Assembly: GCF_003633755.1 (NCBI RefSeq)
Contig: NZ_RBIL01000001.1
Span: 1,101,426-1,165,425, forward strand
Reading direction: 5' to 3'
Length of the DNA stretch: 64,000 bases
Origin: Solirubrobacter pauli
GTDB taxonomy: Bacteria; Actinomycetota; Thermoleophilia; Solirubrobacterales; Solirubrobacteraceae
Position numbers and translations under genes: made by a program. Positions 30,408 through 55,815 of this stretch are shown in pieces. The notes under the pieces are model-generated. The model was not told the DNA's origin. It ran no database searches and saw only the letters and a program-made list of their open reading frames with translations. Every line of letters begins with the position of its first letter. Position 1 is the first letter of the stretch.

Positions 30408-30572
30408 TCCTTGAGCGCGACGGCTCTCGCGTGGCGCTCAGCTCGACTGGCGCACGCCGGGCCTTCGTCGCGTCGGGAAGCACACCGTCGGGCGTCGCGC
30501 TCTTGTGCGGGTGAGCCGCTCCGCCGGGTCCCACCCGGGCGCGGACCGGGCCCCCAACACGCCACTGGTCAC

Positions 30573-30595
30573 TTTGCTGGGCAGAGCCCAGCAAA
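30573..30595. terminator. Bidirectional hairpin terminator
   Basis: Perfect 10-bp arms TTTGCTGGGC / GCCCAGCAAA with a 3-nt loop, in the 271-bp space between the convergent EAL-HDOD and comF genes. The A/T bases at both outer ends give short U-runs in either direction. Apart from this, the gap (30408-30678) holds only GC-rich sequence with no gene I can support. Confidence 0.75.
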
Positions 30596-30678
30596 CCCAC
30601 CACTCGCACCGCGGACGATCGCGCGGCCCGCGCCCGGGCGCACGCAGCCCGGCGCGCGCCACCCGGGCTGAACGCCGC

Positions 30679-31356
30679 TCACAACGTCCGCGCGTACGAC
30701 ACCACCGCCAGCACGCCCCCGCCCGCCTCGGTGAGCGCCCGCGCGCACGCGTCCAGCGTCGCGCCCGTCGTGTGGACGTCGTCGACGAGGATCGCGATCG
30801 GCGGCGGATCGCCGCGCACGCGCACGGAGATCCGGCCGGCCGCGCGACGGGACGCGCGGCCGGTGCCGACCTGGCGGCCCGCGCGGTCCTCGCGCACGAG
30901 GCAGCGGACGACGGGGCGTTCGACGCGACGGCCGAGCGCGTCGGTCAGCACGCTCGCGGGGTCGAAGCCGCGCGCCCGGCGACGGGCGCGCTGGGCGGGG
31001 ACGGGGACCAGCACCGCGGCGGGATCACGGAGCGCCGCCGGCAGGTTCGCGGCCAGGTGCGCCGCCATGAGGTCCGCCACCGGCAGCGCGGCATGGAACT
31101 TCAACGCCGCGACGAGCCGGCGCGTGACGCCCTGGTACGCGAGCGGCGCCCACGCACGCGGGAACGCGGCCGTCGCGGCCGGGCAGCCGGCGCCACGGTG
31201 ACGCGGCAGGCCACAGCGCTCGCAGCCGGGCCGCAACCACGGCAACGCGACCGTGCACGCACGGCACAGCCGGTCGTCCGCCCGCGCGAGCGGCCGACGG
31301 CACGCCACGCACGCGGGCGGCGCGATCGCCGCGACCAGCTCAGCGAGAACGCGCAC
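30679..31356 (-). CDS. ComF-family phosphoribosyltransferase-like protein
   Basis: About 225 residues. An N-terminal zinc-finger-like segment (PPACVACRRPLARADDRLCRAC, CERCG) precedes a phosphoribosyltransferase domain whose PRPP loop is ILVDDVHTTGATLDACA. ComF proteins act in DNA uptake or recombination, but outside competent species the role is open; no other competence gene is in the window. The start is uncertain. I use GTG 31356, close before the zinc finger; the frame stays open upstream through a 21-bp tandem repeat, which would add an improbable Arg/Pro/Ala heptad-repeat extension. Confidence 0.82.
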   Translation of the reverse strand: MRVLAELVAAIAPPACVACRRPLARADDRLCRACTVALPWLRPGCERCGLPRHRGAGCPAATAAFPRAWAPLAYQGVTRRLVAALKFHAALPVADLMAAHLAANLPAALRDPAAVLVPVPAQRARRRARGFDPASVLTDALGRRVERPVVRCLVREDRAGRQVGTGRASRRAAGRISVRVRGDPPPIAILVDDVHTTGATLDACARALTEAGGGVLAVVSYARTL

Positions 31357-31387
31357 GGGCCGGAAGAGCCGACGACGGCGCGATGCG

Positions 31388-31570
31388 GAGCGCGCGCGGC
31401 GCGGGCGCGGGAGCGCGCAGCGCGGGCCGGAGAACGCGCAGGGCGGGCGGGAGAACGCGCAGGGCGGCAACGAAAGCGCGCGGCGCGGGCGCGAGAGCGC
31501 GCGGCGCGGGCGGTAGAGCGCGCGGCGCGGCAGCGAAAGCGTGCGGCGCGGGAGCGCGCGGCGCGGCCCG
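31388..31570. repeat. 21-bp GC-rich tandem repeat in the comF-ctaG gap
   Basis: Nine degenerate units with a 21-bp period, of the type GAGCGCGCGGCGCGGGCG plus 3 variable bases; the unit at 31495-31515 is close to consensus, and the first and last two units are 23, 15 and 19 bp. The period is a multiple of 3, so both strands stay open as heptapeptide repeats. This fills most of the 331-bp space between comF (start 31356) and ctaG (start 31688), where I see no other gene. Confidence 0.9.
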
Positions 31571-31687
31571 GCGAGCCGGCAGCGCGGCCGACCAGGCGGG
31601 CGGCGTGGCGGGCGGGAGGGCGGGCATGTCCACATTGTCCGGATCGGCGCGTGGCGTGTCTGTGGCGACGCGTCACAATCCTGTGCG

Positions 31688-32530
31688 GTGTTTGTGCCGA
31701 CTTTGCTGGGCGCTGCGGAGCCCGTCGACGCGGGGTGGAACTTCGCGCCGATCATCCTCGTGGCGCTGATCGCGTACGTGTGGGTCTATGTGGCCCGTTG
31801 GCGGACGTCGCGCAGGGAAGGCGGGGCGCGCGCGGCGGGCTACGGGCGGCTGGCGTTGTGGCTGCTCGGGATCGCGCTGCTCGCGGTCGCGCTGCTGTCG
31901 CCGGTGGACCGGCTGGGCGAGCAGTTCGCGACGTTCCACATGGTCCAGCACCTGATCCTCGCGGACCTGGTGCCGATCTGCCTGACGGTGGCGCTGACCA
32001 AGCACATCCTGCGGCCGGTGACGCGCCGGATCCACTGGCTGGAGCGGAAGGCCGGGCCGTTCGGGCATCCGGCGTTCGGCGTGGTCGCGTACGCGGCGTC
32101 GATGTGGATCTGGCACATCCCGGTGATGTACGAGGCGGCGCTCGAGCACAGCTTCATCCACACGCTCGAGCACCTGAGCTTCGCCGCGGCGGGCGCGCTG
32201 TACTGGTGGCACCTGCTGTCGCCGATCCGCAGCCGCATGCGGCTCGGCGGGCTCGGTCCCGTGCTGTACATGGCCAGCACGAAGATCGCGGTCGGCTTCC
32301 TCGGGATCATGCTCGGCTTCGCGCCGAACGTCCTCTACGACTACTACGCCAACGAGGGCACGCGGTGGGGCCTGAGCGCCATCGACGACCAGCACATCGC
32401 GGGCGTCCTGATGGCGCTGGAGCAGTCGCTGGTGATGGGCGTCGCGCTCGCCTACCTGTTCATCCGCATGCTCTCGGAGGCGGACGAGGCCGACGAGCGC
32501 GAGGAGCGCTACGGCGCCGCGCCCCGGTAG
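31688..32530 (+). CDS. CtaG-family cytochrome c oxidase assembly protein
   Basis: Integral membrane protein of about 280 residues (caa3-type CtaG, COG3336). Seven predicted helices, with conserved His-rich family motifs FHMVQHLILADLVP, MWIWHIPVMYEAAL, HTLEHLSFAAAGALYWW and DQHIAGVLMALEQS. It assists copper delivery or assembly of the terminal oxidase; no oxidase genes are in the window. Start is GTG 31688 or the next in-frame GTG at 31694. Its stop overlaps the convergent CDP-alcohol phosphotransferase gene by 22 bp. Confidence 0.87.
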   Translation: MFVPTLLGAAEPVDAGWNFAPIILVALIAYVWVYVARWRTSRREGGARAAGYGRLALWLLGIALLAVALLSPVDRLGEQFATFHMVQHLILADLVPICLTVALTKHILRPVTRRIHWLERKAGPFGHPAFGVVAYAASMWIWHIPVMYEAALEHSFIHTLEHLSFAAAGALYWWHLLSPIRSRMRLGGLGPVLYMASTKIAVGFLGIMLGFAPNVLYDYYANEGTRWGLSAIDDQHIAGVLMALEQSLVMGVALAYLFIRMLSEADEADEREERYGAAPR

Positions 32531-33153
32531 GGCTCGCGCGCCGCGAGCACCCGCAGGTTCGAGCACGCCCGCGCGAGCAGCGCGAGCAGCATCACGGCCG
32601 CACCGCCCAGCGCGACGAGGTCGAGCAGCGTGAGCCCGAGCCACGACACCTCGACGCCGAGCGCCACCACCGAGAGCAGCGCGATCAGCGCGATCCGCGC
32701 CTCGGTCGGCCCGAGCCGGCCGTACCCGAGCGAGAAGCGTCCGAACGCGTGCGTCTCCAGGTACGAGTTGATCGACAGCGCCAGGTAGGCGACCACGAGC
32801 ACGAGCCCGGCCGTCAGGTGCATCGACGCCGACAGCCCGAGGCCGAGGCCGACGAGCGCGGTCGCCGCGGCGTCCGCCAGGTGGTCGACGTAGTAGCCGT
32901 AGCGCGGCCGCTCCGCCTTCCGGACCCGCGCGAGCGTCCCGTCCAACGAGTCGCCGAACCAGTGCACGACCAGCAGCGCCGCTGCCGTCCAGAAGTGCCC
33001 GGTCGCCGCCGCCACCGCGAACGCGACCGCCGCGGCCAGCGCCAGCACCGTCAGGTGGTCCGGCCGCACGCAGCCGGGCAGCCGCTTCGCGATCGCCCGC
33101 AGCAGCCACCGCTCCGGCCGGGCCAGGAGGAATGTCGTCTCGCGCTCTTCCAT
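32509..33153 (-). CDS. CDP-alcohol phosphatidyltransferase family protein
   Basis: 214-residue membrane enzyme. The CDP-OH motif DSLDGTLARVRKAERPRYGYYVDHLAD holds the full D-x2-DG-x2-AR-x8-G-x3-D-x3-D pattern (residues about 67-93). About six helices. It transfers a phosphoalcohol from a CDP-lipid to an acceptor alcohol, but the acceptor cannot be read from sequence. ATG 33153 has GGAG 8 nt upstream. The palindrome at 33164-33186 overlaps its promoter region. Confidence 0.88.
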   Translation of the reverse strand: MEERETTFLLARPERWLLRAIAKRLPGCVRPDHLTVLALAAAVAFAVAAATGHFWTAAALLVVHWFGDSLDGTLARVRKAERPRYGYYVDHLADAAATALVGLGLGLSASMHLTAGLVLVVAYLALSINSYLETHAFGRFSLGYGRLGPTEARIALIALLSVVALGVEVSWLGLTLLDLVALGGAAVMLLALLARACSNLRVLAAREPYRGAAP

Positions 33154-46470: not shown

Positions 46471-47468
46471 GCCGCGCCGGCGCGGCGGGTCGAGCCACGC
46501 GTTTGGGGGGAGCGCCGACCGCGCGCGGGGCCGCCACGGCACGCCTCGCGCGCGGCGGCGGAGGACCGGCGGCGCGAGTCGGCGCGGCCGTGCGCGCGGC
46601 GGGCCGCGGCGGGGCGCCCGCCGGGCGCGTCGGCGCGGCGCTCGCCGGCGCCGGGCTCGCGCCGCGGCGCAACGCTCCGGCCGGCCGTGTCGGCGCTGCG
46701 CTGGCCGGCGCGGGGCTCGCGCCGCGGCGCAACGCTCCGGCCGGCCGTGTCGGCGCCGCGCTGGCCGGCGCCGGGCTCGTCGGACGCGGGCGCGCGTTCC
46801 CCATCCTGTTCGGTGCCCTCGCGGCCTCGCAGGTCGTGTACGGGCGGACGTCGCGGCCGCCCGCCGCGACGCGCGGGATCGTCGGGCTGATGCTCGCCAC
46901 GTCGCTCGTCGAGGCGCGGCGGCCTGCGCCGGTCGTGGCGGCCGGCGCGGTCGGATTCGGCGCGGAGCTCGTCGGCGTGGCGACCGGCAAGCCGTTCGGG
47001 CACTACTCGTACTCCGAGCGGCTGGGACCGCGGGTGCGCGGCGTGCCACTGCTCGCCGCCGCGGCGTGGGCGATGATGGCGCGGCCGTCGTGGGCCATCG
47101 CCGGGCGGATCGCGCGGCGGCCGGCCGCGCGGGTGCCGCTCGCCGCCGCCGCGCTCACCGCCTGGGACGTGTACCTGGACCCGCGCATGGTCCGCGAGGG
47201 CTACTGGTCGTGGCCCGGCGGCGGGCGCTACGAGGGCATCCCGGCCTCGAACTTCGCGGGCTGGTTCGCCACCGGGCTGCTCGTGTTCGCCGCCTACGCC
47301 GCGCTCGACCGCGAGCCGGACGACGACGGCGCCGTCGCGCTGTACGTGTGGACGTGGCTGGGCGAGGCGATCGCCAACGCGTTCATCTGGCGGCACCCGC
47401 GCGTCGCCCTCGCCGGCGGCGCGGCGATGGGCGCGTTCGCCGTTCCCGCCCTCCTGCGCCGCGCATGA
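46467..47468 (+). CDS. CruF-like carotenoid 1',2'-hydratase (DUF422) with repeat-bearing N-terminus
   Basis: 333 residues from GTG 46467. Residues about 110-330 are a membrane domain with the DUF422/CruF signatures GKPFGHYSYSERLGPRVRGV, AWDVYLDPRMVREGYWSWPG and GIPASNFAGWF. Known members hydrate the acyclic psi end or act in C50 carotenoid synthesis. The first ~110 residues are Ala/Gly/Arg-rich and include a 20-residue unit (GRVGAALAGAGLAPRRNAPA) repeated in tandem, which is not part of the family; the true start could lie after it, near the FPILFGALAASQVVYG helix. Coupled by GTGA and ATGA to its neighbours. Confidence 0.85.
   Translation: MSRAGAAGRATRLGGAPTARGAATARLARGGGGPAARVGAAVRAAGRGGAPAGRVGAALAGAGLAPRRNAPAGRVGAALAGAGLAPRRNAPAGRVGAALAGAGLVGRGRAFPILFGALAASQVVYGRTSRPPAATRGIVGLMLATSLVEARRPAPVVAAGAVGFGAELVGVATGKPFGHYSYSERLGPRVRGVPLLAAAAWAMMARPSWAIAGRIARRPAARVPLAAAALTAWDVYLDPRMVREGYWSWPGGGRYEGIPASNFAGWFATGLLVFAAYAALDREPDDDGAVALYVWTWLGEAIANAFIWRHPRVALAGGAAMGAFAVPALLRRA
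46621..46779 (+). repeat. 60-bp tandem repeat inside the cruF-like gene
   Basis: Two full 60-bp units (46621-46680, 46681-46740) and a third of about 39 bp, differing at only a few positions. The period keeps the frame and encodes a 20-residue repeat. High identity at third positions points to recent duplication. Confidence 0.92.
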
Positions 47469-54606: not shown

Positions 54607-55815
54607 ATGTCCTTCCGGCTCCCCGCTCTCCTCGCCACGACGCTCGTCGCCGCGCTGGCCCCGGCCGCGATCGCCGACGCGAAGTCCATCACCGGGTCGA
54701 ACGCCGCCGAGGCGCTCACCGGCACCGAGGGCCCGGACACCATCAACGGCAACGGCGGCGCGGACCGGATCCGCGGCCAGGGCGGCAACGATCGCCTGTA
54801 CGGCAACACCGGGCCGGACGACATCGCGGGCGGTCCCGGCGACGACATCCTCGACGGCAGCTCCGGGGACGAGATCCTCAGCGGCGACGAAGGCAACGAC
54901 GTCCTCCTCGGCGGCTTCGGCCACGACACGCTCTACGGCGGCGCCGGCGACGACAACCTCGACGGCGGCGCGGCCCCGGACCGCGTCGAGGGCGGCGAGG
55001 GCAACGACACGATCCACGGCGGCTCCGGCGGCGACGAGCTCTTCGGCGGCCCCGGGAACGACACCATCTACTTCGACAGCGGTCCCGACCACATCTTCGG
55101 CGAGGACGGCGACGACGTCATCTACATCAACGGCGACAGCCTGGTGGACGACGTCGACTGCGGCAACGGCAACGACACGCTCTACGTCCCGCCGCGCGGC
55201 ACCCAGTGGGGGCGCGCCGTCGCCGCCCGCATCCGCGACGGCAAGATCGTCAACTGCGAGACCGTGATCGAGCAGGCCGCGGCGGTCGACCCGACCAAGG
55301 GCATCAGCGCGACCACCGGCAACAAGGGCGGCAGCCGCTCCGGCACCGAGCTCAACGACAACCTGCGCGGCGGTGCCGGCTCGGACAAGATCCAGGGCCT
55401 CGGCGGCGACGACGTGCTCTGGGGCGACCAGAACCACACCGCGCTCGCCGGTGCCAAGGACGCGAACGACACTCTCGACGGCGGCGCCGGCAACGACACC
55501 ATCTACGGCGGCCGCGGCACCAACACGATCTTCGGCCAGGACGGCGACGACTTCCTGCAGGGCGGCGGCCTGCGCTCGCTGATCTACGGCGGCGCCGGCA
55601 ACGACACGATCAAGGTCACCTCGGGCGCGAAGACCACCGTCGACGCCGGTGACGGCGACGACACGGTCACGGCGATCATCGCCCGCGGCCGCGCGACCAT
55701 CAAGTGCGGCCCCGGCAACGACACGGTCATCGAGTCCGAGTGGCCCGGCAACCGCAAGCTCGTGAAGATCGACGCCGACTGCGAGAAGCGCACCCGCCAC
55801 CAGACTTCCAAGTAG
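54607..55815 (+). CDS. Secreted RTX-like (hemolysin-type) calcium-binding repeat protein
   Basis: 402 residues, signal peptide (about 1-24), then two blocks of nonapeptide repeats of the GGxGxDxUx type (GNGGADRIRGQGGNDRLYGN; later GGAGSDKIQGLGGDDVLWGD), separated by a linker near 205-245 containing two cysteines. The repeats fold as a calcium-loaded beta-roll. No catalytic domain is visible and no type I exporter is adjacent; the signal peptide indicates Sec export. Strong ribosome site AGAGGAG before ATG 54607. Confidence 0.9.
   Translation: MSFRLPALLATTLVAALAPAAIADAKSITGSNAAEALTGTEGPDTINGNGGADRIRGQGGNDRLYGNTGPDDIAGGPGDDILDGSSGDEILSGDEGNDVLLGGFGHDTLYGGAGDDNLDGGAAPDRVEGGEGNDTIHGGSGGDELFGGPGNDTIYFDSGPDHIFGEDGDDVIYINGDSLVDDVDCGNGNDTLYVPPRGTQWGRAVAARIRDGKIVNCETVIEQAAAVDPTKGISATTGNKGGSRSGTELNDNLRGGAGSDKIQGLGGDDVLWGDQNHTALAGAKDANDTLDGGAGNDTIYGGRGTNTIFGQDGDDFLQGGGLRSLIYGGAGNDTIKVTSGAKTTVDAGDGDDTVTAIIARGRATIKCGPGNDTVIESEWPGNRKLVKIDADCEKRTRHQTSK

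What the first reader, a model, noticed from the sequence alone, without database searches (positions are those of the whole stretch)
31388..31570. Nine-unit 21-bp tandem repeat beside comF
Units of about GAGCGCGCGGCGCGGGCG plus 3 nt repeat with nearly constant period between comF and ctaG. The period keeps both strands open as heptapeptide repeats, so it could extend ComF or be a protein-binding array or variable-number repeat controlling the two genes.
Basis: seen in the sequence. Interest (0 to 1): 0.5.

Follow-up and report, generated by a model that had tools for sequence, protein, structure and literature searches.

The report
GC-rich minisatellite before comF
A real but probably ordinary stretch of repeated GC-rich DNA has swollen the short gap between two divergent genes in one Solirubrobacter species; the evidence speaks against it lengthening the ComF protein, and any effect on the genes is untested.

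Summary
The repeat is real. At 31376-31543 there are eight in-register 21-bp units, then a 15-bp unit and degenerate copies to about 31621 (TRF score 180; best of 500 dinucleotide shuffles 109). It fills most of the 331-bp gap between divergent comF and ctaG. In the 25 other fetched loci with both genes divergent the projected gap is 32-156 bp, with no TRF row of score 50 or more in it. Five of six frames are open across the array, so the 'open heptapeptide' argument carries no weight. ComF aligns with relatives at GTG 31356, unit differences in its frame are mostly non-synonymous, and the comF-strand RNA folds no better than shuffles. The array sits just downstream of the ancestral comF start site: ATG 31627 opens a 95-codon leader frame, out of frame with comF, overlapping its start by 17 nt. 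One congener, apparently two, also has extra sequence there. The genome's only GGGNGGGNGGGNGGG match lies at the array's edge, a curiosity. Best reading: a slippage-born minisatellite in the comF 5' region, regulatory effect unproven. Strain variation could not be tested.

The parts
31376..31543 (.). Core minisatellite: eight in-register 21-bp units, TRF consensus CGGCGCGGGCGCGAGAGCGCG (+ strand)
   Evidence: TRF score 180; units listed; 0 of 500 shuffles reach the score
31544..31621 (.). Degenerate continuation: one 15-bp and three 21-bp weakly matching units
   Evidence: read by eye; TRF row 31488-31605
31610..31624 (+). GGGCGGGAGGGCGGG, four G3 runs with one-base loops; the only match to that pattern in the held 7.14-Mb genome
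31340..31627 (-). Leader frame from ATG 31627, 95 codons, out of frame with comF, stop at 31342-31340 overlapping the comF start by 17 nt; translation unproven
31634..31639 (-). -10-like box GACAAT 6 nt upstream of ATG 31627 (weak: 14% of random ATG/GTG do as well)
30679..31356 (-). comF coding sequence, start GTG 31356
   Evidence: Pfam DZR_2; orthologues in relatives
31688..32530 (+). ctaG coding sequence, start GTG 31688, -10-like CACAAT at 31674-31679
   Evidence: Pfam Caa3_CtaG E 4.2e-50

Best explanation
It is a lineage-specific GC-rich minisatellite that arose by replication slippage or unequal recombination in the gap between the divergent genes comF and ctaG, just downstream of the ancestral comF start site. 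It is transcribed, if at all, as the 5' leader of comF, lengthening that leader from about zero to about 270 nt and leaving GTG 31356 as the comF start. Shown: the repeat, its absence from relatives with a readable gap, the conserved ctaG-side flank, and no RNA-structure signal on the comF strand. Inferred: the slippage origin, a transcription start near 31627, and a neutral or slight effect on comF expression.
For: The gap is 331 bp here. Of the 30 fetched comF loci, 28 hold ctaG too and 26 score as divergent, the window's own included; the other 25 have projected gaps of 32-156 bp, and no TRF row of score 50 or more falls in those gaps (held against by eye). In the genus the gaps are 61, 63, 64, 64 and 122 bp, the two 64s being two assemblies of one strain. 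ATG 31627 lies 60 bp from the ctaG start, where congeners G004, G005 and G001 start comF (61, 63, 64 bp). Tandem arrays this strong are common in this genome: 5 merged arrays of score 180 or more in 400 kb of spread stretches, 9 in 464 kb with the window. The unit is not dispersed: 4 of 5 own-genome matches to the unit pattern lie in the array (the reversed control pattern gave 3). The comF-strand RNA folds no better than shuffles (z +1.35, 178 of 200 do as well); Rfam gives 0 matches over 30500-32600.
Against: The unit lengths seen are multiples of three (21, and 15), and GC by codon position in the ComF frame peaks at the third position (0.73/0.82/0.945), as coding DNA would give; the coding-like filter also flags the whole frame 30679-31755, array included, though comF makes up most of it. 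GTG 31356 has neither a -10-like box at 6-9 nt nor an SD-like sequence (by eye), so its translation is unexplained. The tight G4 motif beside the array is unusual: 16 of 5000 local shuffles have one. The sister G003 cannot be read, because its contigs end in this gap.
Confidence: 0.75

Rival explanations
1. Leader-peptide control: a leaderless transcript starting at ATG 31627 is translated through the array, and termination at 31340 couples translation to the overlapping comF start.
For: The ATG sits where congeners start comF. A NANNNT box lies 6-9 nt before the chosen start in 7 of 7 sequences (G000-G005 and G021; null fractions 0.07-0.15); the sequences are related, and in G001 and G002 another ATG tried scored worse (0.33, 0.19). 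TANNNT boxes at that distance precede 46 of 236 predicted starts, so leaderless genes look common. G002 has a 25-codon Arg/Pro/Ala-rich leader frame whose stop overlaps the comF GTG by 4 nt, with GGAGG ahead (by eye). In G003 an ATG at that place opens 29 codons to the contig end.
Against: GC by position in this frame (0.946/0.732/0.821) is unlike coding DNA. Open frames are expected (5 of 6 open). The box is weak (0.145). The G003 flank aligns with the array no better than shuffles do (29 of 300 reach it).
Confidence: 0.12
2. N-terminal extension: ComF is translated from ATG 31635 through the array as an Arg/Pro-rich tail.
For: The frame is open from 31755 to the comF stop; unit lengths are multiples of three; GC3 is highest in this frame among the minus frames.
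Against: ATG 31635 overlaps the -10-like box and has no box of its own (null fraction 0.73). Congeners G001, G004 and G005 start comF 61-64 bp from ctaG, leaving no room for such a tail. G003 has an in-frame stop two codons before its GTG, though that contig end looks partly chimeric. 92 of 108 codon differences between units are non-synonymous (no null was run).
Confidence: 0.05
3. DNA-level regulator: the G-rich array and G4 motif bind proteins or form DNA structure that tunes the divergent promoters.
For: The + strand of the gap has 16 G3 runs against 1 C3 run. GGGNGGGNGGGNGGG occurs once in the genome; 20 shuffles of the window gave one match in all, a rough expectation of 5.6 per genome.
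Against: Not conserved: G003 has no match anywhere. The motif was chosen after the fact, and looser G4 motifs are common (33 clusters in 464 kb with loops up to 7). No binding test was possible.
Confidence: 0.08

Closest known systems
Bacterial intergenic minisatellites / VNTR loci (Burkholderia pseudomallei arrays, PMC1853098, passages read; Mycobacterium tuberculosis repeat copy number, PMC12817950, search listing only)
   Same: Short-unit tandem array in intergenic DNA; the PMC1853098 passage says that arrays upstream of genes can alter regulation in other bacteria
   Different: Longer and more degenerate units (21 bp, 77% match) than the 6-9 bp arrays that form the majority there; copy-number polymorphism not shown here
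Leader peptides and translational coupling upstream of bacterial genes (recalled, no paper read)
   Same: A short frame overlaps the downstream start; G002 shows a GTGA-type overlap
   Different: Here the frame is repeat-made, not shared with most congeners and without a coding signature

Membership tests
Bacterial minisatellite | Head-to-tail copies of a 10-100 bp unit beyond chance | tested here: met
   TRF score 180; 500 shuffles at most 109
VNTR locus | Copy number differs between strains of a species | not testable with these tools
   One genome per species is held; one search returned no second genome of the window's species
VNTR locus | Locus variable between related species | tested here: met
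   Gap 331 bp here, 61-122 bp in congeners with a readable gap
ComF N-terminal extension | Homologous or constrained extension in frame with ComF | tested here: not met
   GC3 in that frame is coding-like, a result in favour
Structured RNA leader | Fold more stable than composition gives, or Rfam match | tested here: not met
   comF strand only: z +1.35; 0 Rfam matches at E up to 1
Dispersed repeat family | Arrays of the same unit elsewhere in the genome | tested here: not met
   4 of 5 own-genome pattern matches lie in this array; other DNA matches are 69% over 304 bp or under 160 bp long, with 40 of 762 candidates scored
Leader peptide coupled to comF | Leader frame translated | not testable with these tools
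   frame and overlap only

The most novel reading that the evidence does not exclude
Sequence inserted between the ancestral leaderless start and the body of comF has, in two or three Solirubrobacter species, turned a leaderless gene into one behind an Arg/Pro/Ala-rich leader frame coupled to its start. In the window's species that leader is made of a variable-number repeat, with the genome's only tight G4 motif on the comF template strand, so that copy number would set ComF levels.
Probability: 0.07. Interest if true: 0.5.

Novelty: new member of a known kind. Interest (0 to 1): 0.2.

Why it matters
If ordinary, it is a candidate strain-typing locus for this Solirubrobacter species and an example of how a compact divergent promoter region gains length. 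If the leader reading held, it would show a route from leaderless to leadered translation and a possible variable switch on a competence-type gene.

Tried and rejected
N-terminal extension of ComF: rejected as the main reading. RNA structure: no support on the comF strand or in Rfam; the other strand was not folded. Dispersed family of the same unit: no support. Homology between the G003 GC-rich flank and the array: 29 of 300 shuffles did as well, so not shown. Strain comparison: one genome per species is held; the one genome-contig scan returned 4 Solirubrobacter loci and one Dadabacteria MAG, and warned that records of the window's own genome may be left out. Papers, search listings: 'Solirubrobacter' with 'tandem repeat' gave 3 papers, unrelated by title and abstract start; 'ctaG', 'comF', 'divergent' gave 0; two searches gave VNTR papers among unrelated ones. 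Only PMC1853098 was opened, and of it passages only.

Errors made and mended: the ctaG query was one base out of frame and was redone; one search stopped on a formatting error and was redone; the unit pattern was one base too long and was redone. The -10 model was trained on exact TANNNT sites and so is strict; it puts the comF-side boxes in the best 7-15% of 2156 random starts. No null was run for the synonymous counts.

Full report
What is there. TRF reports 31376-31571, period 21, 9.4 copies, 77% matches, score 180. In register there are eight 21-mers from 31376 to 31543, then a 15-bp unit and three degenerate 21-bp units (the last by eye). The best of 500 dinucleotide-preserving shuffles of the surrounding 391 bases scores 109. 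The array lies between GTG 31356 of comF (minus strand) and GTG 31688 of ctaG (plus strand). CtaG is a Caa3_CtaG protein (E 4.2e-50); the comF product gave the double zinc ribbon DZR_2 and no other Pfam family at E 0.001.

Relatives. Of 61 genomes searched with ComF (the window's own included), 51 had a match, and loci of the best 30 matches were fetched. ctaG was found in 28 of these 30, and 26 of the 28 scored as divergent neighbours. The window's gap is 331 bp; the other 25 are 32-156 bp, measured between start positions projected from tblastn alignments. No TRF row of score 50 or more falls in those 25 gaps (compared by eye). Within the genus the readable gaps are 61 (G004), 64 (G001 and G006), 122 (G002) and 63 bp (G005). 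The window thus comes from a Solirubrobacter; no tool named its species.

The sister. G003 is the closest (CtaG 94%, ComF 80%). Its ctaG contig ends 88 bases from the first base of an ATG, in GC-rich sequence, and its comF contig begins 69 bases before the comF GTG. Bases 3-47 of that contig match an open frame elsewhere in G003 at 93%, and a place in the window's genome at 89%, so that end looks chimeric. A long GC-rich insert in the sister is plausible but unread, and its homology to the array was not shown (29 of 300 shuffles align as well).

Where it was inserted. The ctaG-side flanks of the window and G003 align without a gap between them up to a -10-like box, and an ATG follows 6 and 7 nt after it. 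In the window this ATG (31627) lies 60 bp from the ctaG start; congeners start comF at 61, 63 and 64 bp. ComF itself begins with a similar block (LAEL or alike after three residues) in the congeners shown, at GTG 31356 in the window (by eye). So extra sequence lies between the ancestral start and the comF body in the window (271 nt), in G002 (74 nt) and apparently in G003.

Coding or not. Five of six frames are open across 31361-31621, as base composition and a period divisible by three would give. Synonymous to non-synonymous codon differences among the eight units are 16:92 in the ComF frame, 24:91 in the leader frame and 33:65 in the third minus frame; the plus frames give 22:93, 1:97 and 43:65. 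The unit pairs are not independent and no null was run, so this only fails to show constraint. GC by codon position in the ComF frame is 0.73/0.82/0.945 against 0.82/0.63/0.93 in the comF body: the third position agrees, the first two do not. The most coding-like profile (0.82/0.73/0.946) is that of the plus frame that holds a stop.

Start signals. Among 236 predicted starts in 464 kb, 46 have TANNNT at 6-9 nt; the other distances from 0 to 40 nt average 0.7 each. Leaderless transcription is therefore likely common here (inference). ATG 31627 has GACAAT 6 nt upstream, a weak box that 14% of random starts match as well; GTG 31356 and ATG 31635 have none. From 31627 a 95-codon frame runs through the array, out of frame with comF, and stops 17 nt into it. 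In G002 the corresponding frame has 25 codons and overlaps the comF start by 4 nt. This makes a coupled leader possible, but the window's frame lacks a coding signature.

Background. In 464 kb of this genome (20 spread stretches of contigs C1 and C2, and the window) 14 merged arrays score 90 or more and 9 score 180 or more; 9 of the 14, the present array among them through the long ComF frame, lie in a coding-like frame by the script's rule. Strong arrays are ordinary here. The unit itself is not dispersed: four of five pattern matches in the genome are in this array, and the reversed control gave three.

G4 motif. GGGNGGGNGGGNGGG occurs once in the whole held genome, at 31610-31624, and not at all in G003; the other five genus genomes have 2 to 20 matches, overlapping ones counted. 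Twenty shuffles of the window gave one match in all, a rough expectation of 5.6 per genome, and 16 of 5000 shuffles of the gap contain one. It was noticed after the fact and is not conserved, so it is recorded as a curiosity.

Verdict. The array is a lineage-specific GC-rich minisatellite in the comF 5' region, most likely slippage-born and near neutral. A coupled leader frame is the most interesting rival. Regulation and strain variation remain untested.

Noticed in passing
window 31610-31624: Only GGGNGGGNGGGNGGG match in the 7.14-Mb genome; the seven genus genomes have 0 to 20 matches, overlapping ones counted.
   Followed up: partly
L010 1-47 (G003:C24 start): Bases 3-47 of the sister's comF contig match the middle of an unrelated open frame at 93%, so the contig end looks chimeric.
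   Followed up: partly
window 46619-46779: GC-rich array of period 60, 2.7 copies, 93% match, not in a coding-like frame by the script's rule.
   Followed up: no
window 54829-55063: 27/54-bp array whose consensus reads like GGAGDDILD nonapeptides, resembling RTX calcium-binding repeats (read by eye, motif recalled).
   Followed up: no
window and L059-L078: 46 of 236 predicted starts carry TANNNT 6-9 nt upstream, a strong sign of leaderless genes in this genome.
   Followed up: partly
L014 (G002), upstream of comF: A 25-codon Arg/Pro/Ala-rich leader frame ends in a GTGA overlap with the comF start, with GGAGG ahead of it.
   Followed up: partly
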